NCBI GenBank assembly: GCA_963691705.1
Contig: OY829545.1
Location: forward strand, 11,845,444 to 11,909,443
Direction: 5' to 3'
DNA: 64,000 nt
Source: Viola odorata
Taxonomy: Eukaryota; Streptophyta; Magnoliopsida; Malpighiales; Violaceae
A program made the position numbers and the translations under genes. The number at the start of each line of letters is the position of its first letter. The stretch's first letter is position 1. Positions 13,739 to 60,064 of the stretch are shown here, piece by piece. The notes under the pieces were generated by a model, which saw only the letters and a list, made by a program, of their open reading frames with translations, searched no databases and had not been told where the DNA came from.

Positions 13739-16408
13739 TCAGGATGATTCTACGTCTGAATCGAGCCCCTCGATATAAAGCTCAAAATCCTCCGGACTCC
13801 ATCTGCAAATTAACTGAAGACGGAAAGTGGCCATCTGGATCCCTAACAATCGCTGAAAGTAGGTAATAATAATAAACCAGTTAGATAACACTTCTCTAAG
13901 CGAAAACAAGAAAACTGTGGAAGCAGAGAGAATCAGATGAAATGACAATTCAGCAAAAAATTGATGAGTGGTAACTGCTCATGATATTAAGAACAGCAGC
14001 CACATTTAAGATGCTAAGTATCAAAACTCGCATTAGTATCAAGCCAAGAAAGCTTATGGTCAAAGGGGGAAGGGTAGCAACAGTTCTATAAAAATTATGA
14101 GCAAAAAATTGATGCAAAAGGCAAAAGGCTTTAGCACTGAAACAATTCCTGTCTCATACAGTAGGATTGGTGCCTAATTGCATTAAATTGGCAACACATC
14201 TTGGTAGAGAAAAATTGTTCAACCATCACTAAAACACAGAATGCACACAGCACTTTTAGCTACTTCTCAAGGTAAAAGAACATGCGACTAACCAGTATGC
14301 GAGCTGACTCAGGTGACAAAGGCTTTCCCTCTTCACAGACCACAAAATCTGAAACAAGCTCCACGACACCTGAAAAACATGATCAAAATGAAAATAGAAT
14401 CTCAATTCTTCAAGTATAACGCATGCATTCCACATAAAAGAGATGTGCATGGTTGTATATGCATGCAACATGCACACAAGGGAAAGCAAAGAGCAGAAAG
14501 CAGCTACGAACCTTTGTTCAGCCGAACTGGCATGCTTTGCTTGCGTAGAAAGGGCTCCATTTCATGGGTAAACTGCTCCAGCGGACCTTCCTTAAGTTCC
14601 ACCTGAAACACCCCCACAAAACAAATGTCAAATATATGAACACAGAACACTGTGGTTGCAGAGCAGCATATATGGATAACCCAACCCAATGTGAAGACAC
14701 ATTATTTGGCTATTTTTATAGAGCATTAGAACAGTCTGTGGCCAGAACACGTGTTTCAGATCTTCAATTACTTATTAAACTAATTAATCACGCAATCCAA
14801 TAAGATTATGATTGCTCAAAAACAAGAAAGCCATTTCTACTGAAATATGCAAGCCCAAGCAGACCTTTTCTGTTGCGCTGCTTCCTGTTTTAGCAAAGCC
14901 AATTCCTTCATACTCTCTGAATAACCTGCAAAGTACCCAAGAAAACAGACATAAAAATCAGCTGTTTGTATCTGGGACAGCGATGCAGCCAAGAAGTTGC
15001 TTTAATTCTCAACATTTCCACCTTAATCGTTAAGATCCCACAGAAGAGCAAGCAGCAATACACTTCTAGATATTAGAGTGTTAATATCTGGTATAAGTAG
15101 TTGACTATTTAAAACATCAAGCTCCAGAAAAAAAACATTTGTATGGACCTAAGCTTTAGGCTACATGCATTTGCAAAAGCTTGTCTACTACTTCACATTA
15201 AAAATAACAAAATTTCACAAGCAATCATTAATTTGTAAGACATCAATATAACTACACCAAATTCATAAATAAAACAAAAAGAATAAAACGATGCATCAAG
15301 TTCCTTAAATTTACTGATCATAATTTTTTTTATAAAAAGTAACTAATATTTATGGGGTGCATTCCAGAGATAATGGCACATTAGCTTTGATAGAGCACGT
15401 AATACTTCCAGTAACACATGATATGAAAGGATAAACGATGGAAAATTTAGAACACAGAACCTAAGTGATGCAGTACCAGAGCTTAGAGTTGTTTTCTGCA
15501 ATTAGGAATTATGACAATTTCTCCACTTTCCTAGAAGCTAATGGCTAATTGGGAACCAGTAGTTTGTATAAAATAGACAGGTTACCTTTCAACTTCTTCT
15601 TTTGGCAGGTTTGTAAAACAAAGTCCACCAGTTGCACGCAGAAGCTGAGACAATTTAAACAAAAAGGTAAAGGACAGGTCTTTGGAAACAAAAAGATAGA
15701 AAAGTTATTGGCTGCATAGCCTACCTTGGAAAGTTTGTGGAGACCTGGTCTGATCTCATCAGCAGCAGATCGGCCTAGAGCAACCTGCATGACTTTATTT
15801 GGCCCGAGGAAGAACCTGAAATAATCAGAACAACAAAACCACCAATGAATCATATTGCAAAGTTACAACTTGAAGCTTAAAGTTAGTGGTAAATGTAATT
15901 AAAGAGCTGAAGTTTTCTAGACCGAATAGTTTCTACAATAAACTATCAGTTTGGATACATAAACTATTTCTACTAATGATTTTACTGTCACGATTTCATA
16001 GTTTCTAACATTAGGATTAAGTTCAGACCATTGATTCCACCCGAAGAAGAAAAAAAGATCAAAGCTTTTTACCTGCTGGTTGCTTTGAACTGCTCTCTAA
16101 GCTCCTTGAACTTGGAATTTCTCATGTTCACGAAAGAAAATGCATACACAGAACTATACTTCTCCGCAGCCTCTCTTATCATAGTCACTAGATTCTCTTT
16201 ATGTTCCTTACCTTTCTTCTTTGTTTTCGATAAGGTAACTGCGTATCACATAAAAGAACAAAAAACAAACTCCATGAAGTACTGGGCACCAAAAATCTCT
16301 TTTCATTTCATCTAATTAAACAACCCAGAGAAAAAGGAATTGAAATACAAAAGTGAGCAAGCAAGGAGGACAAAGGAGACCTGGCCTGTTACGCTTAGAC
16401 TTTGGCAT
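13739..16408 (-). CDS. MRT4: mRNA turnover protein 4 homologue, 60S ribosome assembly factor
   Basis: Eight exons on the minus strand (16381-16408, 16073-16238, 15725-15815, 15586-15644, 14865-14925, 14512-14602, 14293-14369, 13739-13852) join in frame into 228 residues. The protein starts MPKSKRNRP and contains FFLGPNKVMQVALGRSA, GLCFTNLPKEEVE, EGPLEQFTHEMEPFLRKQ and ICRWSPEDFELY, all hallmarks of MRT4, a paralogue of ribosomal stalk protein P0. In the nucleolus MRT4 occupies the P0 site on pre-60S particles and is later exchanged for P0. All exon joins agree with GT-AG sites and phases, no stop interrupts, and the length equals that of other plant homologues. It is divergent from the separase gene, with start codons 1.7 kb apart. 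Confidence 0.95.
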
Positions 16409-30100: not shown

Positions 30101-31450
30101 AAATTAAGTAAAGCCAAATAAGGGGCTCCATGAATTGATTAAGAACCAAACTATTGTTGTTGGCCAATCTTGCAGCATCTTGTTCTTTGTCAATGGATTT
30201 AGATCAAACTTGTTGCATCTAACGTATCTAAAACCGCTGCGAGTCTTTGTTCTGTCAGATTCTAAGGCTAATAGTGGTACTCATTGCATGAAATATTTGC
30301 ATCTTTCTACTGCTAGTGGGAAACGGATCAACAGATTGTGTTCACCTTACAGATGCTTCCATGGGAGAATTTACCAATACTAAGAGACCAGGAGGTCTAT
30401 CGTATGCCTTCTGTTGGAAGCATACGTATGAGACTTGAAACAAGTTGCTGTCATCATCAAGATCAAGGTGGGAGCATTGTTCCGGCCTTCCCTTTGATAG
30501 ATCCCTTGGACGCGTTTTATTTGTTGAATCCCAGTGGTGATCTATGCGGCACTCAAGTTGAGTTTGAGAACTGGTTTAGAGATCAAGACCTGGAGGTAAT
30601 TTCTTGGTCAAAAAGAAATGTGTGGCATATTTCATACTTAGAACTAGATGTAACGCTATGCATTTCTAAGTGTTATTGATATTTTTCCATCTTTGATGTT
30701 CCATCAATTATCAATACAGGGGAAGGCTGGATCTGCACCCACTGCAGAAGAATTGGCAACGGCCTTGAAAAGCCATGATCTCTTTATTTATTTTGGCCAT
30801 GGAAGCGGTATGCACAATTAAATAATGCCAGTTCGTAATGATTGTTGTTGTTTATTTTGCTGTTCTGGTTTGCATTACAAAGTTCCCTTGAAATGTAGAA
30901 TCTGTAACTGTGTATGACTGGTGTTACAGGGACGCAATACATACCCCAGCAGGAGATACAGAAGCTGGAGAAATGTGCGGCTACTCTTTTGATGGGGTGC
31001 AGTAGTGGTTCTCTTTCACTAAACGGATCTTATGTTCCTCAAGGTGCTCCATTATCCTATCTATTAGCAGGTTCTCCTGTCATTGTGGCAAATCTTTGGG
31101 ATGTGACAGACAAGGACATAGATCGATTTGGGAAGGCAATGCTCAATGCTTGGTTAAGAGAAAGATCTACCGCCTCTATAGAGTGCCCCCAATGCAGTTT
31201 ACTAGTCGAGAAATTCGAGGCAATGAATGTTAGAGGTGGTAAAGGGAACGCTGCAAAGAAGAAAGTCCAGAAGAAGAGAGCATCAGAAGCCTGTGATAGG
31301 GAGTGTTTGAAACATTCTTGTGACCACAGACCGAGAATTGGATCGTTCATGGGAAAGGCTCGTGAAGCCTGCACCCTGCCCTTTCTGATTGGAGCATCAC
31401 CGGTATGCTACGGGGTGCCAACTGGTATAAGGAGAAAGAAGGATTTGTAG
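18143..31450 (+). CDS. ESP1: Separase (peptidase C50, extra spindle pole bodies homologue)
   Basis: The protease that cleaves the cohesin kleisin subunit to release sister chromatids at anaphase. I placed 27 exons: 18143-18861, 19054-19231, 19331-19438, 20230-20352, 20440-20939, 21273-21372, 21496-21624, 22472-22765, 22843-22953, 23058-23285, 23408-23509, 23714-23860, 23951-24319, 24416-24505, 25264-25527, 25625-25748, 25891-26712, 27181-27409, 27578-27686, 27889-28086, 28577-28626, 28706-28935, 29033-29270, 29573-29969, 30353-30595, 30720-30807, 30930-31450. They join with matching phases into 2236 residues, near the Arabidopsis protein's length. The N-terminal two thirds is the helical repeat scaffold that binds securin. 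The catalytic dyad is His about 2061 (YFGHGSG) and Cys about 2087 (LMGCSSGS), followed by [10 protein letters not shown] and the C-terminal [20 protein letters not shown]. The first exon has a Gly-Ser-Asp repeat, exon 17 a 15-codon internal duplication. Exon borders may shift by a few bases. Confidence 0.93.
26537..26615 (+). repeat. In-frame 45-base tandem duplication inside separase exon 17
   Basis: The block beginning TTGCAATAAAATTAAGCAT occurs at 26537 and again exactly 45 bases later at 26582, so the protein carries [11 protein letters not shown] followed by [11 protein letters not shown]. The frame is kept and few bases differ, so the duplication is fairly young and lies in a poorly conserved linker. 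Confidence 0.85.
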
Positions 31451-38412: not shown

Positions 38413-39036
38413 ATGAAGATGTTTGTTGGCCTTGTGCTCTTTGCAGTTTTTGCTCTCCCTGCTGCCTTTGCAGCTCAGCAAGATGTCATCACTCTCCAAG
38501 CTTATGAGGAGCTTCTCAAGAATGGGGCTGCTATTGGAATGACCAAAACTGTCATCTCAAGCCCTGTTCTTGAAGAGGCTCTCGTCTCTTACTCCAAGAA
38601 CAAGCTTGGCGGTCTTCCTGTCTGCGGAGAGACTTGCGTTGGTGGAACATGCAACACCCCTGGGTGCTCCTGCAGCTGGCCAGTCTGCACCAGAAACTCT
38701 CTTGAAAGCACCAAATCAGCAAACCCTCTCCTTGAAGAGGCACTCACCGCGTTCGCCAAGAAAGGTCTTGGTGGTCTTCCCGTCTGCGGTGAGACTTGCG
38801 TCGGCGGAACATGCAACACCCCTGGGTGCACTTGCAGCTGGCCTGTTTGCACCAGAAATGCTCTTGAGACCCAGAAACCCAACCATTTGCTCGAAGAGGC
38901 ACTCGTTGCATTCGCCAAGAAAGGTAACCTCGGAGGTCTTCCCGTATGCGGCGAAACTTGCGTTGGTGGAACCTGTAACACACCTGGGTGCTCTTGCAGC
39001 TGGCCTGTTTGCACCAGAAACTCTCTTGCCATGTGA
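38413..39036 (+). CDS. Cyclotide precursor 1, three cyclotide domains (varv A / kalata B1 / varv A types)
   Basis: Encodes a 207-residue secretory precursor of head-to-tail cyclic, cystine-knotted defence peptides. Residues 1-20 are the signal peptide ([20 protein letters not shown]), followed by a pro-region. Three 29-residue cyclotide domains follow at residues 67-95, 121-149 and 175-203, each with six cysteines, the loop-1 Glu in CGETC and the Trp-Pro of Moebius cyclotides. Domains 1 and 3 have Ser in loop 4 (varv A, also called kalata S), domain 2 has Thr (kalata B1). Each is preceded by an LEEAL-type N-terminal repeat ending LG before the first Gly, and ends in Asn followed by SL or AL, the site where asparaginyl endopeptidase cuts and cyclises. 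No intron. An AATAAA signal lies at 39215-39220. Activity in the plant is known for the family, not shown here. Confidence 0.97.
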
Positions 39037-42574: not shown

Positions 42575-43198
42575 ATGAAGATGTTTGTTGGCCTTGTGCT
42601 CTTTGCAGCTTTTGCTCTCCCCTCAGCCTTTGCAGCTCAGCAAGATGTCATCACTCTCCAAGCTTACGAGGAGCTTCTCAAGAATGGGGCTGCTAATGGA
42701 ATGGCCAAAACTGTCATCTCAAGCCCGGTTCTTGAAGAGGCTCTCGTCTCTTACTCCAAGAACAAGCTTGGAGGTCTTCCTGTCTGCGGAGAGACTTGCG
42801 TTGGTGGAACATGCAACACCCCTGGGTGCTCCTGCAGCTGGCCAGTCTGCACCAGAAACTCTCTTGAAAGCACCAAATCAGCAAACCCTCTCCTTGAAGA
42901 GGCACTCACCGCGTTCGCCAAGAAAGGTCTTGGTGGTCTTCCCGTCTGCGGTGAGACTTGCGTCGGCGGAACATGCAACACCCCTGGGTGCACTTGCAGC
43001 TGGCCTGTTTGCACCAGAAATGCTCTTGAGACCCAGAAACCCAACCATTTGCTCGAAGAGGCACTCGTTGCATTCGCCAAGAAAGGTAACCTCGGAGGTC
43101 TTCCCGTATGCGGCGAAACTTGCGTTGGTGGAACCTGTAACACCCCTGGGTGCTCTTGCAGCTGGCCTGTTTGCACCAGAAACTCTCTTGCCATGTAA
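42575..43198 (+). CDS. Cyclotide precursor 2, three cyclotide domains (varv A / kalata B1 / varv A types)
   Basis: A 207-residue precursor with the same architecture as the gene 4162 bases upstream: signal peptide (1-20), pro-region, and three 29-residue cyclotide domains at residues 67-95, 121-149 and 175-203 with the same Ser, Thr, Ser order in loop 4, each ending in Asn-Ser-Leu or Asn-Ala-Leu. All three mature peptides are identical to those of precursor 1. Amino-acid differences occur only before the first domain: Val12 to Ala, Ala17 to Ser, Ile41 to Asn and Thr44 to Ala. No intron. The 3' flank shares AATTAATAAAAGTCCAGTTA with gene 1; AATAAA is at 43376-43381. Both copies look functional, so the locus gives four varv A-type and two kalata B1-type peptides per pair of precursors. 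Confidence 0.97.
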
Positions 43199-44169: not shown

Positions 44170-45547
44170 GGGAAAAGTCAGAATTTGGCACCTGCACTTG
44201 CATTGACTAACTAATTTGACACCTCCTTCGGTCAAACGATTTAAAAAGCATCTCCACTTGACTAATATGACACTTTTGACACTCGTCATTGACGCCGTCC
44301 GTCCTCCACCGTTAACTGTTGACGTGTCATGCCACGTGGTATGACACGTCATCAACATGATGACGTGGCATGCCACGTCTGAAAAAAGTAATTAATTTTA
44401 AAAAATCATAAAAATAATATAATTAATTATAAAAATTCAAAAAAATAATATAATTAATTATAAAAATTCAGAAAAATAATGTAATTAATTTAAAAAATTA
44501 AGAAAAATAATATAATTAATTTAAAAAAATCATAAAAATAATTTAATTAATTTAAAAAAAAATAAAAAAAAATAATTAATTCTAAAAATTCAAAAAATAC
44601 TTTAATTAATTTTAAAAATTTAGAAAAATAATTTAATTAATTTTTAAAATCTAGAAAAATACTGTGATTAATTTTAAAAACACGGAAATGTAATTAGTTT
44701 TCATGACTAGTGGTTGGAAATGCCGGAATTTGAGTGGGAACACCATCCCCACTGCCGATTCAGCAAACCCAAATATAAACTAAATATGAAGATCTACCTA
44801 GGAAATTAATAATTTTCATGACCAGCGGCTAGAAAACCAAGCCCGCTGGAGCTCCTACCATAACCGGCAACTACAATAGTCTGTACTGTTGTCGCAAATC
44901 TAGCGCACCACCACCACACCACCGCCACAATAGATTTGGCGCCAAAATCAGAGTGGGAACACCATCCCCCACTGCCGATTCGGCAAACCCAAGCATAAAC
45001 TAAATATGAAGATCTACCCAAGAAATTAAAAATTAATTATAATATTTTTTTGGATTTTTAAAATTAATTAAATTATTTTTCTGAATTTTTAAAATTAATT
45101 ACATTATTTTTCTAAAAATTTTAAATTAATTATTTTTAAAAAAATTTAAAATTAATTACATTATTTTTCAGAATTTTTAAAATTAATAATATTATTTTTT
45201 TGAATTTTTAAAATCAATTATATTATTTTTCTTAATTTTTAAAATTAATTAAAGTATTTTTATAATTTTTATAATTAATTAAATTAAATTTCTTAATTTT
45301 TAAAATTAATTATATTATTTTTCTGAATTTTTAAAATTAATTATATTATTTTTCTGAATTTTTAAAATTAATTATATTATTTTTCAGATGTGGCAACGTA
45401 GTTAACGGTGGAGGACGGACGACGTCAATGACGAGTGTTAAAAGTGTCATATTAGTTAAGTGGAGGTGCCTTTTAAATCGTTTGACCGAAGGAGGTGCCA
45501 AATTAGTCAGTTAATGCAAGTACATGTTTCAATTTCTGACTTTTCTC
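44170..45547. mobile_element. Mutator-like non-autonomous element with 9-bp target duplication
   Basis: Ends GGGAAAAGTCAGAA and, inverted, GAGAAAAGTCAGAA begin arms of roughly 200 bases (GACTAATTTGACACCTCC..., ACGCCGTCCGTCCTCC...). CTCTTTTTA is repeated exactly at 44161-44169 and 45548-45556. Inside the arms are arrays of a roughly 30-40-base AT-rich unit (AAAAATAATATAATTAATT) in opposite orientations around a core (44700-45020) that itself holds a direct repeat of about 65 bases (GAGTGGGAACACCATCC...). No transposase. Confidence 0.9.
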
Positions 45548-46480: not shown

Positions 46481-47639
46481 CTAGTCATGTCCATTGATTA
46501 TAGTTACTCCCCAGTCTGCATCCTCACAGTGCTTGACATGAGAAACAACCTTGCTGACATCAACAGCTTCTCCACTGCAATCATATTTTGGTGGAAAATG
46601 GAAACAAGGCTCCATAGACATGGCTTGACCACATGGAAGATTTGGGGTCTTCCCATTTGAAGATAAATAAAGGATCCATGGCTTCAAACCACCAAGACCT
46701 TGAGCCACATATCCAAAAGTTGATATGGAACTGGTAACCAACACATCACTCATACTAAGAAGATACATTTCAGCCAATGCTTTCATGTTATGCATGCTAT
46801 TCCCATATTGTTCATACCCTTCATGACTTGGCTGGAAAATCCCAATCACCTCCCCTGTCTCGGTCGCTTTTGTCCAGTACAAATCCCTCATATGCTCATA
46901 GTACTCAGAGTACAAGGATGTTATGAGAACAGCTTTCAAACTATGGTTGTTGCTGATGTGATCAGGAGGAGAATTAGGTGTATTAAGGGCTTGTGGAAGT
47001 AGTTTTTGATTCACCGTGCAGGACAGAATTTGGTCCAGAACAGTCTGAAATGGAGTTTTGGTGGTGTTTAACACTCTTACTTGGATGCCAATTCTCTGAT
47101 CTGCTCTGGCTAGGTAGGCTTGATAGAACCTGGTGATTAGTCCCCATACCTCATTGGAGGGTTGAAAAAGATAGCGACCCAAGAAGTGGAAAACAGTTTC
47201 TTTGTCAGGAAACATGTTTGTAAGCTCATTCTTGAAAGATTCCATCAGGAAAAGAGATGGGACAAAGTATTGATTTGAAGTGATGACCAACCAAGGCACT
47301 GATTGAATCTGAGCTTGATTCTTGTCACAATAAAAGAACCCATCTTCCTTATCAATGTTGTAAGCAAGGTAGAGGAGAAGGAATGGGGAGGATTTGATGG
47401 TGGTGGCATCTAATGTTTTGTTCTTTAGCATATTGCCATAAGTGTTAGGGTACTTCTGATCAAAAGTATGCGCAATCTGAGGTCCTCAAATATGGTCCAA
47501 TGGCAACAACCATGTTGTGTTAGGGAATGGTTCGCAGAAGAGGTTAGACGAATCATAGGGAAATTGGACAAGGAGGACTCTGTTTGTTAGCAGAGCATAG
47601 AGGAAAGCAGAGGAGAGGGTGAGCATTTTGTTGCCTAGG

Positions 47640-49167
47640 TGACCGCGCGTCGAACACGTCAAATATAGTAGTGAAATAGTTATGGAATTGGGGGTAGAAA
47701 TACAACTTATCACTGTCTACAATAGCTTGTAGATGATGGTAAGAGGATCGTCCACAGAGACCTCTAGGAAATGTAGTTCTTGAGTTTGACTTCCTCGTCA
47801 CTGAGAGTGGGTTTGGTTGGTATCTGAAACTGAAAGACAAAACAAAAAGTAATGAAAACAGTTTAAAATATAAAATAGTATTGGCCGAAGTCTAGGCCAA
47901 GACTGCGGGCTAGATTGGGAAAAAGTCTTGTGATACGGAATTCCAGGTAAGGGCGATGGGTGAGCTTGCGTTCTTATGCATCGATCATGGACTGGAGTAT
48001 GTTCATCTCTTCTTCATAGTACTGCTATAGAGGGGAGGAACTCCTTTTCCCTCCTATCTTCCCTCCTCTTCAAACTATCTGGCGGGTACTCCCTCTCCTG
48101 ATAATCCTAGCCAAGGGACACCTTGCTGGTTAAAGGGTTTATCCGTTTGACTGCTGTCTTGAATGGTTGCTCACCTCTTCAATGGTGCAGGGGAAGACAG
48201 TACCTAGGCTAAGTTCCTAGGTTGTCAATCTGGTCTCTACCTATTTTACTTATTCTTCTAGTCTGCTCGAGACTAGTCACCTACTCCGTCTAGCCGGCGG
48301 GAACTCCCTCTCCTTCTAGACTGGTTACAACTCTTCTCTCCTAGAGAACAAGGATGATCAAACCTTGGCTCTAGTGAGTAAGCGATGGATTAAGTTCAAG
48401 AATAAATAAATACAAAGAAAGAGATTGTGAAGAACGGATTGTGTCTCACGATTGAATTAAGAACTTCAGCTCATCACCCTTACCAAGAATGGGTTTTTAG
48501 TTACTCATACTCATGGATAAAAGATAAAGAAATTAACTTGCATAAATATAAATAAATCCGAAATAAATTCGGAGCAAAGTATTTTAACAATGGCGAAAGA
48601 AGAAGAAAGAGCGTCTGAGAGAGAGTGAGGAAAAGGGGAGGACGAGATCAGCTATAAGAAAGCTAAAACTCCTCTGTCCTTCTCCAACTCAATCTCCTAA
48701 ATAATCTCCTAAATAATCTCCTAAAAGATTATTACAATTAATTGTTCTAAATATGGAAACTAAATCGCAATTAATTAAAGAGGGAGATCCCCTTCGGGAT
48801 TCTTCATAAGATAGTCTTCCTATCCCTCTAAAATTGCTGGACAGCTGCTACGTGCCAGCTGTGAGAGTCCAACTCCAAAAATACTTCAATCGCTCCAAGC
48901 TGCAGTCTGATCGCAAAGGAGTCTTGGCCGGAGTCTAGGCCAAGACGATTCTGGTAAGCGCACTGCGTCAGATGCGAATATGTCTAGGCCAAGACCCAGG
49001 CCTAGACTCGAGTAAACAGCTTCGGCTCCAAACTTCGTGAATTCTTCTCATTCAGCCTCCAAACCAGACCTGATAAGATATGGGAAATTAAGGGATACAT
49101 CAGTAGATTTACTGTCCAAAACTACAAGTAAATGGACAATAAAACATGATGAAATGCAATGCAATCA
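47640..49167 (-). repeat. 3' LTR of the retrotransposon (left on the plus strand)
   Basis: 1528 bases, TG...CA borders. Differs from the other LTR at three places seen by eye: CGGGAACTCC versus CGGGTACTCC, GATTGAATT versus GATTGCATT, and CATGATGAAA versus CATGATTAAA. Confidence 0.95.
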
Positions 49168-49180
49168 AACTCCCCACACT
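49168..49180 (-). other. Polypurine tract region of the retrotransposon
   Basis: Read on the minus strand it is AAGTGTGGGGAGTT directly before the 3' LTR, the purine run that primes plus-strand DNA synthesis. The same word GTGTGGGGAG recurs near 50165, at the start of the non-coding region. Confidence 0.75.
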
Positions 49181-50271
49181 TAAACTATGCTTGCCCCCAA
49201 GCATACAGACTCAAAGACTCAACAAAAATTAAAAACACATCAAAACAAAACAGACATCCTGACCCCTTGGACTTTCTCATTTTCAAATTGCTTACCCGTC
49301 CACTGGATCTGCCAAGACACTTCACTAGAGTACCCAATGCAAGACTAACAAGGAATGATCAATACCCCGAACATACACCTTCCACATGGTATCAAGACAC
49401 CTTACTAGATTAGATGATAAAGTATAGGGCAACAAGGTTCACCAAGGATTTGAGTCCCACCAAGTGTCGTCTATCAAAAAGTGCCTAAAGACTGGTGCCA
49501 TTTAAATCACTTTGACAGAGATTTTTCTTCTTTTATTTTCTTTTATGTCTTTAGCAATTTTTTTTTTTCTTCTGACAATTCAAGTGTCTTTTCTATGATA
49601 AATTTTTTCTTTTATAGACACGGCACATAGACAGAGCTTGTCCTTTTCAGCGGGGACTTCCACCTTTGCTATGTCTGTCCTATGACATTCCAACACCTTT
49701 ATTTGTCTCACACTACAACAGATAGAACGACACACTCAAATCCGGGCAGCAAACCTCATCATCCTAATAAGAATTAAGGTCCTAGCTAGGTGTCCTTACG
49801 ACCATATGGATGGCTAACGTTCGGGAAACATCAGATTAAATGCCCCTTAGGCATTGATCATTTACGCTCATTCGCATCCCTGTTACTAAAGCATTGTATT
49901 CCCTAGAAAAGTGTCTACATGCAATCCCACCAAAAGACTAAACAATCTAAGCAAGAAAACAGGGATTCGGATGTTCACAACAAAACAAACTCAAAACATG
50001 CATAAAAATACCAATAAAAATCATGCAAATGACTGACTCTATACTGGACATACTGATATAAAAATAAAAAATTAAAACACACTAATTTGACTCACAGAAA
50101 CAGACGCAAAACACACAATCAAACATTTAATATTCACAAAAACACAAGACATATTTAACACCCTCCCCACACTTAAAAGACACAATGTCCTCATTGTGTG
50201 GAGAGACAAAAATAAAAGACAAAACATAAAAATAAAAGAAAGGAAAGATATAACCTGGGGGCAGAAGCAAC
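49181..50271. other. Non-coding region of the retrotransposon between Gag-protease and 3' LTR
   Basis: 1.1 kb where the polymerase genes of an autonomous element would start. No reverse transcriptase, RNase H or integrase motif is visible in any frame. Open frames are short. Confidence 0.75.
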
Positions 50272-53145
50272 TCAGGTTGCTGGGGTCTGGGGATCTTGGC
50301 CAGAAGCTTGGCCTAGATCAGGGGCAGGAGGGTCTTTTGGTTTCGGAGCTCTTGAAGCAGGAGGTTCTTGGCCTAGCGGTTGTCCAGGATGTTCCAGGAT
50401 GGACTGTTGTTGTTGAGCGAGTGGAGTGCTGCTGAAGTCCGTTTTCAGGTGGAGACTAGATAAGGGATTTTGGCCGCAGTCTTTGCCTGTGTCTTGGCCT
50501 AGATCAGCTGCTGCTGCTGGATCTGTAATGGGTGGGTCTTGCAAAGCCTTCGACTCCAGTTGTGGTGTCTGCACAACAGAAGGTAGGAATTTAGGAACCG
50601 TAGACTGCACGAATTGGCAACTTACAGTTTTTTTCTTCGGTTTGGCAGTCTTGGCCTGCGTCTTGGCCAAGCTCGAGGCCAAGACTGAGTCTGTTTTTTC
50701 TGGATCGGCCAAACTGGCCAAAACTTCTGGGAGTTCCTTCTGATCTCCTGCTCTGTCCTCCAATCCTGCTATTGGATCTAAAATATCAAGAAAATTCACG
50801 CAATGTGGATCATTAGGATGCTGTGATGCTTCTGTGATGCTGAATTTTATAGTACTTCCAAAGAATTCTAAAATTATGCTCCCTTCAAAGCAGTCAATCT
50901 TAGCCTTCGATGTCCTTAGAAATGGTCTTCCTAATAAAATGTCAGTGGTGCAAGAAGGCAATTGAATATTCATTTCAACAATGTAAAAGTCCACTGGATA
51001 TATAAAATCATTTACCATTACCAAGACATCTGTCACAATTCCCTTGGGTCGGATGAACGATCTGTCAGCCAGCTGAATCACCAGATCAGTCTCCTTCATC
51101 GTACCTAGCTTCAAGGTCTCGAATTCTCTTAATGACATGACGTTGATGCCGGCTCCTAAATCACAAAGAGCTTTCTCTATCGTTTTGTTTCCTATTCGGC
51201 ATGGAATGGTGAAAGTTCCTTGATCCTTGCACTTCTCTGGAAGTTGCTGCACTGTATGAACTAAATTCACCCTCTCTACACCTGCAACTTTCTTTTTGTT
51301 AGTGCAAAATTCTTTAAGAAGTTTAGCATAAGAGGGAACTTTGGCAATTAAGTCTAACATAGGCATATTAACAGCTATCTTTCCAAAAAAATTCATAAAG
51401 TCCCTTGCTTCATCTTGTTTCTTCTCTTTTGAGGATCTAGGAGGAAACGGTGGAGGAATTTCGATCACTTCCTCTTTCTGGTCAGTCTTGGCCCGAGTCT
51501 TGGCCAAGACAGGTTCTGTTTTTTCTGTTTCCCTGGGAACAGCAGGTTTGGTCTGAGGTTTGGCCAAGACAGCTTCTGCCTCATTTTCATCCAACTCTTG
51601 CGATTGAATTTTCTCCAATTCCTTGTCTGTTTTCGCACCTTGCCTCTCTGGTAACACACTTCCACTCCTTAAACTCATGGCACTAACATTAACATGGTGC
51701 GCTGGATTGTTTACCGTGGTGGGAGGTAATTTGCTTTGGTTAGCCATCTGATTGATTTGCTTCTGCATCTCCGCCTGTGATTGCACAAAATTCTTCTGCA
51801 TCTCTACCTGTGACAACATAAAATTTTTCTGCATCTCTACCAGATTAGTGTGGGTTGCTTGCATAAAATTTTTGAGTGTATCTTCCACAGAAGGACCAGT
51901 AATCTGCAAAGGTTGAGGGGCAGGCGGTAGCTGAGCTACAGGAGCTTGGCCAGGGGCTTGGCCTAGATTCTGTTGTGGAGGGACTGGATCTCTCCATCTG
52001 AAGTTTGGGTGGCCTCTCCATGAGTACTCGTTGCTTCCCTGAGGGTAGTTTTGCATGCTCCCTTGGTTGTGTGCGTATGCTGCATTAACCTGAGTCATAT
52101 CATCCGAAGGGTGTTGCACCATATAACAATTGTTGGTTTGGTGATCCTGCTGCTGGCATATCCCACACACTGAAGCTACCTGCTTTTGATTTTGAATTCC
52201 TGTAGGCATTGCACCTGAAAAGTTAATAGAAAGATTTTTGACCATGTCAGTTAATTCAGTTAACTTTTGTTCAACATTAATAGCACAAAGATTTGAAGGA
52301 ATAGAGTTTCGGTCAGAAGAAATATTATTTTGGCAATTGTCCGCCATAGTTTGAAGTGGCATCTTGGCTCTTGTGACAGTCAAATCTTGCAATGCTCCAC
52401 CAGCTGCTGAATCCACTTTCTCTTTGCAGCTTGGCAGCATCCCGTCATAAAAGTACTGGATCATTGTCTGATCCGCAACTCCGTGTGTAGGGCAGACTTC
52501 CTGCAACTCACGGAACCGTTGATGATATTCACTTAGACCCTCATCGTTCCTTTGCTGGATGGCAGCCATGTTCTTTCTAGCTACCCCTGCTTTTGTTGCA
52601 TTCCAGTACTTGTTTAGGAACAAAGTGGACATCTCGGCCCATGTGTTGACCGTGTTGTGAGGTAGACCGTAGAACCAATTTTGGGCAGCCCCCTCAAGAG
52701 AGCATGGAAAAGCTTTCAACTTTGCTCTTTCCATATTCACAGTAGCTGGTTTCATCATGTCACATTGAACGTGTAGGTTCCTCAGATGCTTGAATGGGTT
52801 TTCATTTGAATGGCCAAAGAACTTAGGAAGGTTGGCCACCATATTGGTCTTTATAGACCAGTCATTGGGTACAGCTGGTAAACTAATACAGGAAAAGGTT
52901 TCCTGTTCCGCTGTTTTGTTCAGTTCCCTCATCGTGGGCTCTGGTTGATTTTCTGCCATGTCTTGGCCGGAGTCTTGGCCAAGATCGTGGTCTAGACTGG
53001 AATCTGTTTCGGAACTAGAGGTTTCCGATTCACTTTCTTCTGGGGTTTTCCTCTTTCTAGCTATCTTTCTGAGTTGTGCTTCGGTCTTAGTGAGATTCGG
53101 ATTGTACAGTAGCAAATCTTCTTCTCTGCAAGAGGACCTGGTCAT
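50272..53145 (-). CDS. Retrotransposon Gag-protease polyprotein
   Basis: 957 residues from the ATG at 53145. About residues 100-260 are the retrotransposon Gag capsid domain (PFKHLRNLH, AQNWFYGLP, WAEMSTLFLNKYW, LSEYHQRFREL). A zinc knuckle C-x2-C-x4-H-x4-C is at 327-340. Residues 427-462 repeat a heptad-like unit around VEMQKNF three times, probably a coiled coil. An aspartic protease follows: active-site CDLGAG at 661-666 (DLGA in place of DTGA/DSGA, as in many Athila-type elements) and ILLGRPFL near 736-743. The tail (about 800-957) is Pro/Gln-rich; a stretch near 855-871 looks like the linker that leads into reverse transcriptase in related elements, but the frame then ends. Repeated LGQD-x-GQD and LAKT-x-AKT peptides come from one palindromic DNA word. 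Confidence 0.92.
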   Translation of the reverse strand: MTRSSCREEDLLLYNPNLTKTEAQLRKIARKRKTPEESESETSSSETDSSLDHDLGQDSGQDMAENQPEPTMRELNKTAEQETFSCISLPAVPNDWSIKTNMVANLPKFFGHSNENPFKHLRNLHVQCDMMKPATVNMERAKLKAFPCSLEGAAQNWFYGLPHNTVNTWAEMSTLFLNKYWNATKAGVARKNMAAIQQRNDEGLSEYHQRFRELQEVCPTHGVADQTMIQYFYDGMLPSCKEKVDSAAGGALQDLTVTRAKMPLQTMADNCQNNISSDRNSIPSNLCAINVEQKLTELTDMVKNLSINFSGAMPTGIQNQKQVASVCGICQQQDHQTNNCYMVQHPSDDMTQVNAAYAHNQGSMQNYPQGSNEYSWRGHPNFRWRDPVPPQQNLGQAPGQAPVAQLPPAPQPLQITGPSVEDTLKNFMQATHTNLVEMQKNFMLSQVEMQKNFVQSQAEMQKQINQMANQSKLPPTTVNNPAHHVNVSAMSLRSGSVLPERQGAKTDKELEKIQSQELDENEAEAVLAKPQTKPAVPRETEKTEPVLAKTRAKTDQKEEVIEIPPPFPPRSSKEKKQDEARDFMNFFGKIAVNMPMLDLIAKVPSYAKLLKEFCTNKKKVAGVERVNLVHTVQQLPEKCKDQGTFTIPCRIGNKTIEKALCDLGAGINVMSLREFETLKLGTMKETDLVIQLADRSFIRPKGIVTDVLVMVNDFIYPVDFYIVEMNIQLPSCTTDILLGRPFLRTSKAKIDCFEGSIILEFFGSTIKFSITEASQHPNDPHCVNFLDILDPIAGLEDRAGDQKELPEVLASLADPEKTDSVLASSLAKTQAKTAKPKKKTVSCQFVQSTVPKFLPSVVQTPQLESKALQDPPITDPAAAADLGQDTGKDCGQNPLSSLHLKTDFSSTPLAQQQQSILEHPGQPLGQEPPASRAPKPKDPPAPDLGQASGQDPQTPAT

Positions 53146-53191
53146 CAACTATCAAAAACAAAATAAAACAAAAACTACAAATACCGTTAGA

Positions 53192-53211
53192 GATCCCCGG
53201 CAACGGCGCCA
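53192..53211 (-). other. Primer-binding site of the retrotransposon (tRNA-Asp type)
   Basis: On the minus strand it reads TGGCGCCGTTGCCGGGGATC, complementary to the 3' end of plant tRNA-Asp, and begins five bases after the 5' LTR. This primer is common in Ty3-group elements. Confidence 0.85.
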
Positions 53212-53216
53212 AAATT

Positions 53217-54744
53217 TGACCGCGCGTCGAACACGTCAAATATAGTAGTGAAATAGTTATGGAATTGGGGGTAGAAATACAACTTATCACTGTCTACAAT
53301 AGCTTGTAGATGATGGTAAGAGGATCGTCCACAGAGACCTCTAGGAAATGTAGTTCTTGAGTTTGACTTCCTCGTCACTGAGAGTGGGTTTGGTTGGTAT
53401 CTGAAACTGAAAGACAAAACAAAAAGTAATGAAAACAGTTTAAAATATAAAATAGTATTGGCCGAAGTCTAGGCCAAGACTGCGGGCTAGATTGGGAAAA
53501 AGTCTTGTGATACGGAATTCCAGGTAAGGGCGATGGGTGAGCTTGCGTTCTTATGCATCGATCATGGACTGGAGTATGTTCATCTCTTCTTCATAGTACT
53601 GCTATAGAGGGGAGGAACTCCTTTTCCCTCCTATCTTCCCTCCTCTTCAAACTATCTGGCGGGTACTCCCTCTCCTGATAATCCTAGCCAAGGGACACCT
53701 TGCTGGTTAAAGGGTTTATCCGTTTGACTGCTGTCTTGAATGGTTGCTCACCTCTTCAATGGTGCAGGGGAAGACAGTACCTAGGCTAAGTTCCTAGGTT
53801 GTCAATCTGGTCTCTACCTATTTTACTTATTCTTCTAGTCTGCTCGAGACTAGTCACCTACTCCGTCTAGCCGGCGGGTACTCCCTCTCCTTCTAGACTG
53901 GTTACAACTCTTCTCTCCTAGAGAACAAGGATGATCAAACCTTGGCTCTAGTGAGTAAGCGATGGATTAAGTTCAAGAATAAATAAATACAAAGAAAGAG
54001 ATTGTGAAGAACGGATTGTGTCTCACGATTGCATTAAGAACTTCAGCTCATCACCCTTACCAAGAATGGGTTTTTAGTTACTCATACTCATGGATAAAAG
54101 ATAAAGAAATTAACTTGCATAAATATAAATAAATCCGAAATAAATTCGGAGCAAAGTATTTTAACAATGGCGAAAGAAGAAGAAAGAGCGTCTGAGAGAG
54201 AGTGAGGAAAAGGGGAGGACGAGATCAGCTATAAGAAAGCTAAAACTCCTCTGTCCTTCTCCAACTCAATCTCCTAAATAATCTCCTAAATAATCTCCTA
54301 AAAGATTATTACAATTAATTGTTCTAAATATGGAAACTAAATCGCAATTAATTAAAGAGGGAGATCCCCTTCGGGATTCTTCATAAGATAGTCTTCCTAT
54401 CCCTCTAAAATTGCTGGACAGCTGCTACGTGCCAGCTGTGAGAGTCCAACTCCAAAAATACTTCAATCGCTCCAAGCTGCAGTCTGATCGCAAAGGAGTC
54501 TTGGCCGGAGTCTAGGCCAAGACGATTCTGGTAAGCGCACTGCGTCAGATGCGAATATGTCTAGGCCAAGACCCAGGCCTAGACTCGAGTAAACAGCTTC
54601 GGCTCCAAACTTCGTGAATTCTTCTCATTCAGCCTCCAAACCAGACCTGATAAGATATGGGAAATTAAGGGATACATCAGTAGATTTACTGTCCAAAACT
54701 ACAAGTAAATGGACAATAAAACATGATTAAATGCAATGCAATCA
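53217..54744 (-). repeat. 5' LTR of the retrotransposon (right on the plus strand)
   Basis: 1528 bases, same borders as the partner LTR. It should hold the element's promoter; I did not fix a TATA box with confidence. Confidence 0.95.
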
Positions 54745-55567
54745 CTAGGCCACTCATCGATGCGTAGATAACATATTTGCAGGCTGTGGAGTTAAGAGGA
54801 AGGCCTGAATTGAGCTGCTGTAAGGATTCATTGTAGGGTTTGGTGTAAGGTCCACAAAGTTTGTGAAGATTTTCATAGCTTCTTAGCTTTGAGAGGAGAT
54901 AGGCAGATGGCTTATGGGGTGATGGTTTTTGAAATAAAGGTGATTCCAATCTGCTCAAGCATGTTTTTGTATCTGATTCTGGTGCAAATAGTTCATCAAG
55001 AGCAAGTTCAGAGGAATCCTTCCCTGAATAAAAGATGAAACGAAATAAGTTACAGGCACAAAACTTATACTTTTGCTTATGAATTGAGTTGAACGATGTA
55101 TATAGGCGTGCCTAAATGAAACTTCAGAAGTAGTGTATAATTTTCTATACGATTTTAAATAACAATTCTCTCCATATCTAAGTATGCATGGTGTATCATT
55201 AGTTTTCTGCAGTCATGCAATCAAGTGGTATGTCCGTTGGTGGTCCTAAAATTCTTAAAGCGATTTGGGTTCGAATCTCACATTTGATAGTGAAAAATTA
55301 ATAAAAAGAATCAAAGAAGGATGATGGTGTGTCATTACCATTTGGAACTAGTTGTCCTGCTGAAACATGGTCCTTAGTAGCTGTTATCTTGCTGTTATTG
55401 CTGTGATCTTTAGGTTGCCAACCGGCCGTCGTGAGACTGAAACTTGTGGTGTGCAACAAGGAGGCCCCTGTAAGAAAAGAGAGAGCAACCAAGCAAGCGA
55501 GTTTCACTTGAAACACTTTGCTGGACCAGCACGTGTGGTCCTCATAATTTACATTTCCCATCATCAT

Positions 55568-58224: not shown

Positions 58225-60064
58225 CTACTCAGTCACGCGAGCATTCACAATCTTTACTCCCCAACTTGCATCCTCACACATCTTGACATGAGGAACAGCC
58301 TTACTGACATCAACAGCTCTTCCTTTACAATCATGTTTTGGTGGAAAATGGAAACAGGGCTCAATCGACATGGCTTGACCGCAAGGAGGATTTGGGATTT
58401 TCCCATTGGAAGGTATATACAGAATCCATGGCTTCAAACCAGCAAGACCTTGCGCCACATATCCAAAAGTTGACATGGCACTGGTCACCAACACATCACT
58501 CATGCTAAGAAGATACATTTCAGCCCAAGCTTTCATGCTATGCATGTTATTCCCATATTGTTCATACCCTTCATGACTTGGCTGGAAAATCCCAATCACC
58601 TCCCCCGTCTCGGTCGCTTTTGTCCAGTACAGATCCTTCACATGCTCGTAGTACTCAGAGTATAATGATGTAATCAGAACAGCCTTTGAACTATGGTTTT
58701 TTCTGTTGTGATCAGAAGGAGAATTAGCTATCGGGTTTTGCTTATCTACTTTCGGTAGTAGTTTTTGGTTCATTGTGCAGGACAGGATTTGGTCCAGAAC
58801 AGTCTGAAATGGGGTAGTGGTTGCGTCGAACACTCTCACTTGGATGCCGATTCTCTGATCTGCTCTGGCTAGATAAGCTTGATAGAACCTGGTGATTAGT
58901 CCCCATGCCTCATTGGAAGGTTGAAACAGATAGCGACCCAAGAAGTGGAAAACAGTTTCTTTGTCAGGAAACAAGTTTGTAAGCTCTTTCTTGAAAGATT
59001 TCATCAGGAAAAGAGATGGGACAAAGTACTGATTTGAAGTGATGACCAACCAAGGCACCGATCGAATCTGAGCTTGATTCCTGTCACAGTAAAAGAACCC
59101 ATCTTGCGTATCGATGTTGTATGCGAGGTAGAGCAGAAGGAATGGAGAGGACTTGATGGTGGATCTTAAAGTTTTGTTCTTTAGCATATTCCCATAAGTT
59201 TGAGGGTATTTCTGGTCGAAAGTATGCGCGATCTGATGCCTCAAGGGATTGTCAAATGGCAACAACCATGTAGTGTTGGGGAATGGTTCGCAGAAGAGAT
59301 TCGAAGAATCATTCTCAAATTGGACAAGGAGAACTCTGTTCGTGAGCAGAGCGTAGAGAAAAACAGAGGAGACAGTGAGCATTCGGTTGCCTAGACCGCT
59401 CATGGATGTGTAGACAACATATTTACAGGTAGTGGAGTTAGGAGGAAGGCCTGAGTTGAGCTGCTGTAAGGATTCATTGTAGGGTTTAGTGTAAGGTCCA
59501 CAAATTTTATGAAGATTTTCATAGCTTCTAAGCTTTGAAATGAGATAGGGAGATGGCTTGTAGGGTGAAGGTTTTTGAAATAGAGGTGATTCAAATCTGC
59601 TCAAGCATGTTTCTTTATCTGATAATTCTGGTGCAAATAGTTCATCAAGACCAAGTTGAGAGGAATCCTTTTCTGCAAAAAAACAATAACGATTAGCTAC
59701 ATTTAGAGCGATTATCTGCTAGTAGTAAAATATCAATAAGGTTTCGGATTTGAATCTCACCTCCATCTGTTGGTAGCAAAGTATTAGTAGCATTGTCATT
59801 AGCAACTAATGTCATTGATTGTGTGCCATATTGAACATCTCCTAATCCTAAATTCCTACTGTCATTAAAGCTGTCGTGGTCTTTGATCATGAGACTGAAA
59901 CTTGTGGTATGGAAAAACATGGAAGCCATTGTTAGAGCAGAGAGAGCAAGCAAGCAAGCACATGATATGATTGTGCATCCACTTATTTGGAGCTTCAATT
60001 GAAAAACTTTCCCTGACCAGGAAGCATATTGCTCATTATTATTCACTCTATTCATCTTCATCAT
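58225..60064 (-). CDS. Fucosyltransferase copy B, intact (GT37, xyloglucan/galactoside 2-alpha-L-fucosyltransferase family)
   Basis: A Golgi type II membrane enzyme that adds fucose from GDP-fucose to cell-wall glycans. Exon 1 is 59761-60064, exon 2 58225-59672; they join in frame (GAG/GTGAGA donor, TTTGCAG acceptor) into 583 residues. A short cytoplasmic tail is followed by a membrane anchor (CTIISCACLLALSALTMASMFF). The lumenal domain has the family motifs SMSGLGNRMLT near residue 192, RIGIQVRVF near 375-383 (GDP-fucose binding), SLYSEYYEHV, and STFGYVAQGLAGLKPWIL near the C-terminus, with no stop or gap. A splice acceptor just before the ATG and a donor at 61142-61143 indicate a 5'-UTR intron. 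It is the only complete copy in the cluster. Whether it acts on xyloglucan or arabinogalactan proteins cannot be told from sequence. Confidence 0.93.

What the first reader, a model, noticed from the sequence alone, without database searches (positions are those of the whole stretch)
47880..54600. Palindromic word GTCTTGGCCAAGAC scattered through LTRs and coding region of the retrotransposon
The 14-base word is its own reverse complement. A perfect copy is at 51497-51510, and near copies (GTCTTGGCC, GTCTAGGCCAAGAC, GGCCTAGAC) recur in pairs at about 47880-47903, 48921-48946, 48982-49011, 50287-50310, 50490-50512, 50648-50686, 51943-51970, 52960-52986 and in the other LTR. Within Gag they yield the repeated peptides LGQD-x-GQD and LAKT-x-AKT on the sense strand, so one nucleotide word appears in different reading phases. 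Recurrence in both non-coding and coding parts suggests selection on the DNA or RNA: a binding site, an RNA dimerisation (kissing-loop) signal, or a self-spreading minisatellite. I know of no described example of this kind in a plant element.
Basis: partly seen in the sequence, partly recalled or inferred. Interest (0 to 1): 0.8.

Follow-up and report, generated by a model that had tools for sequence, protein, structure and literature searches.

The report
Repeated 12-bp-pitch boxes in plant retrotransposon
A young plant retrotransposon carries the same short symmetric DNA word about a dozen times, in its non-coding ends and inside its only gene in two reading frames, on a strict 12-base spacing, which looks like an array of protein-binding sites.

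Summary
The element (47640-54744, minus strand) is a young non-autonomous LTR retrotransposon with one long ORF, Gag with a weak protease match. All 13 matches to the word in the window lie in it, against 2.0 expected. Codon-preserving shuffles of Gag never reach the count (7 against 1.6; 0 of 500).

The unit is not a lone palindrome. It is two or three GGCC boxes on a 12-bp pitch: one dyad RTCTWGGCCWAGAY plus outward half-sites, with 3-base spacers of nearly free sequence. Arm pairs occur 13 times at gap 8, 4 at gap 20, once at gap 17, never at 15 other gaps (some overlap). Units sit in the least conserved parts of Gag, in two frames, and fix GGC for glycine (10 of 10 inside, 3 of 32 outside).

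Fixed spacing with free spacers fits a protein-binding array best; RNA structure or neutral spreading remain open. Nearest precedent: palindromic repeated motifs of Sireviruses (PMC2829016). None of 180 relatives carries two of the peptides. Close relatives could not be examined; the genome search did not complete. Novelty: new variant of a known kind.

The parts
47640..54744 (-). LTR retrotransposon, 7105 bp, inserted in a xyloglucan-fucosyltransferase-like gene copy; target duplication CTAGG
   Evidence: LTR pair with 3 differences in 1528 bp, CTAGG on both sides, joined flanks match the paralogous gene at 88% over 298 bases
53217..54744 (-). 5' LTR (1528 bp), three word units; TATA-like TATATTTA at LTR position 618 (a text match only)
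47640..49167 (-). 3' LTR (1528 bp), the same three units
50272..53145 (-). Gag ORF from its first ATG (listed from a TTG at 53148), the only long ORF of the element, with a weak protease match
   Evidence: Retrotrans_gag 4.4e-17; Asp_protease_2 0.0038, 18.3 bits, below its cut-off of 24.3
54559..54584 (-). unit a (5' LTR): GTCTAGGCC tgg GTCTTGGCCTAGAC; twin at 48982-49007
54498..54523 (-). unit b (5' LTR): GTCTTGGCCTAGAC tcc GGCCAAGAC; twin at 48921-48946
53455..53492 (-). unit c (5' LTR), half-full-half: ATCTAGCCC gca GTCTTGGCCTAGAC ttc GGCCAATAC; twin at 47878-47915
52960..52997 (-). unit d/e in Gag, frame 1 (DLGQDSGQD), half-full-half
51943..51968 (-). unit f in Gag, frame 1 (NLGQAPGQA)
51545..51570 (-). 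unit g in Gag, frame 0 (VLAKPQTKP), degenerate: second box is GACC
51485..51510 (-). unit h in Gag, frame 0 (VLAKTRAKT); holds the only perfect dyad
50648..50685 (-). unit j/k in Gag, frame 0 (VLASSLAKTQAKT), half-full-half
50467..50504 (-). unit l in Gag, frame 1 (DLGQDTGKDCGQN), full-half-half, middle box GGCA
50365..50390 (-). unit n in Gag, frame 1 (PLGQE), weak
50293..50330 (-). unit o in Gag, frame 1 (DLGQASGQD), with a weak left half-site

Best explanation
The units are repeated composite DNA sites: a dyad RTCTWGGCCWAGAY with one or two outward half-sites 12 bp away. I infer that they are bound cooperatively by a sequence-specific dimeric DNA-binding protein, host-encoded or supplied by an autonomous partner element. 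Sites upstream of the TATA-like box would act as an enhancer. Sites along the body would extend binding over the whole element, for example to keep its chromatin open, as VANC proteins do at density-dependent motifs of VANDAL elements. Shown: the excess, the fixed pitch, the nearly free spacer, two coding frames plus non-coding copies, placement where Gag is least conserved, and the absence of comparable sites from the rest of the window. Inferred: binding, the protein's identity, the effect on transcription or silencing, and how copies spread.
For: Arms at 7 of 9 or better occur 13 times at gap 8 (12-bp pitch) and 4 times at gap 20 (24 bp), once at gap 17 and never at the other 15 gaps from 3 to 20 (the arm pattern was written after seeing the copies, and half-full-half units count twice). 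With nine copies chosen on the first 14 bases only, the far arm is 84% alike, the 3-base spacer 37%, the flanks 28-29% (two of the nine overlap); without the overlap 82% against 44%, matched by 7 of 220 column permutations. The stretch between the arms keeps the rest of a dyad on one side in 46 of 50 positions over 10 non-overlapping units, 0 of 20000 random draws (72 of 80 with overlaps), which a bare hairpin does not need. The W positions vary without compensation inside the dyad. Excess over synonymous shuffles: GGCC pairs 12 apart 6 against 0.43 and strong-flank GGCC 9 against 0.9, 0 of 1000 each. GGC 10 of 10 inside units against 3 of 32 outside; 10 of 11 if the weak left half of unit n is counted. 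In 56.9 kb of flanking DNA none of 82 GGCC has strong flanks and none are 12 apart; one poor two-arm match, without GGCC, was found at 14970.
Against: No binding protein, expression or chromatin data. One element only, so shared ancestry of copies and selection cannot be cleanly separated. The spacer-against-arm test is modest (7 of 220), and the middle spacer base is itself biased to C. The fixed pitch also makes 9-bp hairpins, several of which fold stably. In the two precedents read, such motifs lie mainly outside coding sequence.
Confidence: 0.4

Rival explanations
1. Neutral self-spreading. The units are short patches copied within the element, by template switching during reverse transcription or by gene conversion, and tolerated in variable Gag linkers and LTRs.
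For: Units lie in the least conserved parts of Gag (mean identity 0.072 against 0.263 over 21 chosen relatives; 2 of 20000 random placements as low), and unit h lies in a stretch nearly absent from those relatives (occupancy 0.03). Units h and j share 13 bases of flank in the same position, a trace of copying. Units fall into sub-types by context: LTR, frame 0, frame 1.
Against: Apart from h and j no flank similarity in register was found (most other matches were neighbouring units sharing one flank, the rest were 9-12 bases out of register, best c and o at 12 bases). Spacer sequence differs more than the arms while the spacing is kept; copying should preserve the spacer as well as the arms.
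Confidence: 0.27
2. RNA element. Each unit is a 9-bp stem with an 8-base loop, or a self-complementary dimer contact, used many times for genomic RNA dimerisation, compaction or Gag packaging.
For: Stems are perfect in 4 of 11 units and have one mismatch in 3 more; unit a shows a swapped A-T pair relative to b. Local folding gives mean stem probability of 0.5 or more in 6 of 11. In a 5.8-kb minimum-energy fold, 5 of 11 units examined form their own hairpin (c, e, l, o and the 3' LTR copy of b) and the other 6 (f, g, h, j, k and the 3' LTR copy of a) pair with other copies. Palindromes were suggested to mediate Ty1 RNA dimers (PMC4974528, passages).
Against: Arms match no better within a unit than when reshuffled among units (0.87 against 0.84; 270 of 2000). 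Four of 11 stems lose two or three of nine pairs. Both LTR units upstream of the TATA-like box have low local stem probability (0.22 and 0.09). A constant loop length and a dyad half inside the loop are not needed by a hairpin. No Rfam family matches the element at gathering threshold.
Confidence: 0.2
3. Protein-level repeats. GQDxGQD and AKTxAKT are short linear motifs selected in Gag, and the DNA word is a by-product.
For: All eight Gag sites carry such a peptide or part of it, and codon-preserving shuffles already give some two-arm matches (mean 3.3, up to 8, against 9 observed).
Against: Two different peptides come from one DNA word in two frames. Three units lie in each non-coding LTR. 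The four-fold site of GGC is fixed while amino acids at D and Q positions change. Counts exceed all synonymous shuffles for most patterns (0 of 500 for six; 1, 0 and 0 of 1000; 0 of 1000). None of 180 relatives has two or more of the peptides.
Confidence: 0.06

Closest known systems
Palindromic repeated motifs (RM) of Sireviruses (PMC2829016; abstract, one section and passages read)
   Same: Short dyad-symmetric motif at 8-32 copies per element in 13 elements, in the LTR upstream of a TATA box and elsewhere, suggested as regulatory without proof; extra copies at the start of ENV in two elements.
   Different: Ty1/copia lineage with a CGG-CCG core (all but one element), clustered in LTR and linker. 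Here the Gag is Gypsy-like, the core is TWGGCCWA, there is a 12-bp multi-box pitch, and most places lie in Gag in two frames. The passages seen do not mention a multi-box pitch.
VANC-target motifs of VANDAL elements (PMC5735166, passages; PMC10398659, outline and abstract)
   Same: A short motif enriched in one TE family at high density, evolving fast and bound by a sequence-specific protein.
   Different: Motif arrayed in one orientation (YAGTATTAY for VANC21), mainly non-coding and in tandem repeats; the binding protein is encoded by the TE. No such gene is seen here. That VANDALs are DNA transposons is recalled.
Palindromic sequences suggested for Ty1 RNA dimers (PMC4974528, passages)
   Same: Self-complementary sequence in a retrotransposon RNA, with Gag binding sites at it.
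   Different: Described in the 5' region of Ty1 RNA, not as a dozen units through LTR and gag.
Rickettsia palindromic elements and REP/REPIN repeats (search listings only; coding-frame insertion of RPE recalled)
   Same: Palindromic repeats dispersed, some inside coding sequence.
   Different: Bacterial and genome-wide, RPE longer (recalled); here seen in one element of this window.
TR-GAG non-autonomous retrotransposons (PMC5818461, passages)
   Same: LTRs and gag, no reverse transcriptase or integrase.
   Different: This ORF also has a weak protease match.

Membership tests
TR-GAG (non-autonomous LTR element lacking pol) | Two LTRs, target duplication, PBS and polypurine tract | tested here: met
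   1528-bp LTRs, CTAGG duplication, TGGCGCCGTTGCCGGGGATC just inside the 5' LTR, AAGTGTGGGGAGTT before the 3' LTR (the last two identified by eye)
TR-GAG (non-autonomous LTR element lacking pol) | gag ORF present | tested here: met
   Retrotrans_gag 4.4e-17
TR-GAG (non-autonomous LTR element lacking pol) | pol region absent | tested here: inconclusive
   No reverse transcriptase or integrase match in the only long ORF and 1.1 kb left to the 3' LTR without a sense ORF of 70 aa or more, but a protease-like stretch is present (0.0038, below cut-off)
Sirevirus with RM | Dyad-symmetric motif at 8 or more copies, many in the LTR upstream of a TATA box | tested here: inconclusive
   11 places with one LTR counted, but three per LTR and two of these upstream of a TATA-like text match
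Sirevirus with RM | CGG-CCG core (all but Tnd-1) | tested here: not met
   core is TWGGCCWA
Sirevirus with RM | Ty1/copia lineage | tested here: not met
   Retrotrans_gag match, weak Ty3_capsid match below cut-off, relatives are Gag-RT-integrase polyproteins of the Retrotrans_gag type; no RT to place on a tree. That this is the Gypsy side is recalled
VANC-type anti-silencing target | Sequence-specific protein binds the motif and removes methylation | not testable with these tools
   no binding or methylation data
VANC-type anti-silencing target | Motif mainly in non-coding tandem repeats | tested here: not met
   8 of 11 places (one LTR counted) are in the Gag ORF; Tandem Repeats Finder lists none of them
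RNA dimerisation hairpin | Paired arms kept by compensatory change | tested here: inconclusive
   one swapped pair; pairing within units not clearly above reshuffled arms (270 of 2000)

The most novel reading that the evidence does not exclude
An element-wide operator array. A retrotransposon has spread a 12-bp-pitch composite binding site through its LTRs and, in whichever reading frame tolerates it, through its own capsid gene, so that one DNA-binding protein coats the whole element and the coding sequence is shaped by a regulatory code.
Probability: 0.3. Interest if true: 0.75.

Novelty: new variant of a known kind. Interest (0 to 1): 0.5.

Why it matters
If the array is a binding platform, it would show a mobile element embedding regulatory sites inside its structural gene, with the protein tolerating whatever peptide results. 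That makes the question of how retrotransposon regulatory motifs arise and spread testable in one compact case. A fixed pitch with free spacers gives a ready probe for finding the binding protein.

Tried and rejected
Exact palindrome as the unit: rejected, since 10 of 11 dyads are imperfect and pairing is no better than in swapped halves. Chance and codon usage: rejected. Tandem-repeat array: Tandem Repeats Finder lists none of the units. Known RNA family: none in the element at gathering threshold. A host-wide word: no good site in the 56.9 kb around the element, one poor two-arm match; the genome could not be searched.

Relatives: the 180 proteins listed by two searches were scanned. One search scored only the 7984 candidates sharing most words and listed 120 of 782 matches. 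A third search with the C-terminal tail found none at E 0.01 among 2806 candidates. I chose 21 of the 180 for the conservation test. IMG/VR scans: 34 stretches carry a two-box pattern and 4 the primer-site sequence; I did not read them, so they say nothing either way. A Gag-based scan matched 80 stretches and confirmed none.

Cytosine context: dyads are poor in CG and CHG (5 of 77 cytosines against 683 of 2358 in the element), but copies of one word are not independent, so I do not lean on it. The avoidance of TAG by frame-0 units, which I first took as a hint, is trivial in an open frame, and unit j has T at the second W followed by CG; dropped.
Full report
What the element is. The finding lies in an LTR retrotransposon read on the minus strand, 47640-54744. 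Its two 1528-bp LTRs differ at three positions, it is flanked by CTAGG on both sides, and it interrupts a copy of a xyloglucan-fucosyltransferase-like gene; the joined flanks match the paralogous gene at 88% over 298 bases. A primer-site-like sequence TGGCGCCGTTGCCGGGGATC follows the 5' LTR and a polypurine tract precedes the 3' LTR; that this primer site is typical of Athila-type elements is recalled, not tested. The only long ORF encodes a Gag of 957 residues from its first ATG, with a retrotransposon gag domain and a protease match below cut-off. The 1.1 kb left before the 3' LTR has no sense ORF of 70 residues, so I infer that reverse transcriptase and integrase are borrowed. Two cyclotide genes in the window point to a violet-like host; that inference is from general knowledge.

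Is the word real? Yes. In 64 kb there are 13 matches to GTCTTGGCCAAGAC with up to 3 mismatches, all inside this element, against 2.0 expected. An unbiased k-mer count on one LTR plus the internal part ranks GGCCAAG (k 7) and GGCCAAGAC with GTCTTGGCC (k 9) first. Synonymous shuffles that keep the Gag protein and its codon usage never reach the observed counts (7 against a mean of 1.63, 0 of 500). LTR shuffles never reach the count for the long word either (3 against 0.05, 0 of 500), though two short sub-words are reached 1 and 5 times. The 1.1-kb stretch before the 3' LTR shows no clear excess.

What the unit is. Scanning one LTR plus the internal part for a left arm RTCTWGGCC and a right arm GGCCWAGAY (7 of 9 or better each) at every gap from 3 to 20 gives 13 pairs at gap 8, four at gap 20 (the next multiple), one at gap 17 and none at the other 15 gaps. 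The arm pattern was written after seeing the copies, and three-box units count twice; the point is the single spacing. So GGCC boxes sit on a 12-bp pitch. In most units one box carries a full or nearly full dyad and its neighbour only the outward half; c, d/e and j/k have half-full-half, o has it weakly, and l has full-half-half. The three bases between boxes are nearly free. Among nine copies selected on the first 14 bases only, the unselected far arm is 84% identical pairwise, the spacer 37%, and flanks on either side 29% and 28%. Removing the overlapping copy gives 82% against 44%; 7 of 220 column permutations do as well, so this single test is modest. In the same nine copies the middle spacer base is C in 7.

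Nucleic acid rather than peptide. The same word is read as LGQDxGQD in frame 1 and LAKTxAKT in frame 0, and occurs three times in each LTR. Inside units glycine is GGC in 10 of 10 codons, elsewhere in Gag in 3 of 32; counting the weak left half of unit n makes it 10 of 11. GGCC pairs 12 apart number 6 in the ORF against 0.43 in synonymous shuffles (0 of 1000); single GGCC number 21 against 11.3 (1 of 1000). Part of the two-arm count is explained by the protein (mean 3.3, maximum 8, observed 9), the rest is not (0 of 1000). The units occupy the least conserved parts of Gag: mean identity 0.072 against 0.263 over 21 chosen relatives, 8 of 958 circular shifts and 2 of 20000 random placements as low.

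DNA site or RNA structure? Units can form a 9-bp stem with an 8-base loop: four of 11 stems are perfect and three have one mismatch, and mean stem probability is at least 0.5 in 6 of 11 local folds. In a 5.8-kb minimum-energy fold 5 of 11 units form their own hairpin and 6 pair with other copies. Unit a has a swapped pair relative to b. But arms pair no better within units than across units (270 of 2000), dyads pair no better than swapped halves (1762 of 2000), the loop length never changes, and the loop keeps the rest of a dyad (46 of 50 positions in 10 non-overlapping units, 0 of 20000). A hairpin needs none of this, whereas a row of dyad half-sites on one helical pitch does. I therefore favour a DNA-binding array, at 0.4, over neutral spreading (0.27) and RNA structure (0.2). 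The protein, the binding and the effect are inferred. The idea that coverage of the element body keeps it active is borrowed from VANC proteins, whose motif density matters for localisation (PMC5735166, passages).

Relatives. Two protein searches listed 180 relatives; three hold a single LGQD or LAKT and none holds two or more of the peptides. The nearest are P0001, 36% over 81% of Gag, and P0061, 58% over part of the C-terminal half, so the word is either recent in this lineage or confined to it. A third search with the C-terminal tail found nothing. A Gag-based scan of viral contigs confirmed no relative; contigs with pattern matches were not read.

Known or new. Sirevirus repeated motifs are the nearest precedent: palindromic, up to 32 copies, upstream of a TATA box, and in two elements also at the start of ENV. 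This case differs in lineage, core sequence, multi-box pitch, and placement through Gag in two frames. I call it a new variant of a known kind.

Noticed in passing
38413-39036 and 42575-43198: Two cyclotide precursor genes, each with three cyclotide domains, identical at 613 of 624 bases and 4.2 kb apart: a recent duplication in a violet-like genome.
   Followed up: partly
46481-47639 and 54745-54977; paralog 58225-59604: The retrotransposon splits one xyloglucan-fucosyltransferase-like gene; an uninterrupted paralog lies about 3 kb away.
   Followed up: partly
47635-47639 / 54745-54752: The empty insertion site reads CCTAGGCCAC, sharing CTAGGCCA with the word; the paralog has CCTAGACCGC. May be coincidence, or a hint that a bound protein tethers integration.
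   Followed up: partly
44172-45545: Large inverted repeat (arms of 107-193 bp) whose arms hold opposite arrays of a 31-bp AT-rich tandem repeat: a foldback-like element.
   Followed up: no
51760-51841: 33-base tandem repeat inside Gag (EMQKNF repeats), unrelated to the word.
   Followed up: no
30914-31450: C-terminal piece of a Peptidase_C50 (separase, name recalled) gene.
   Followed up: no
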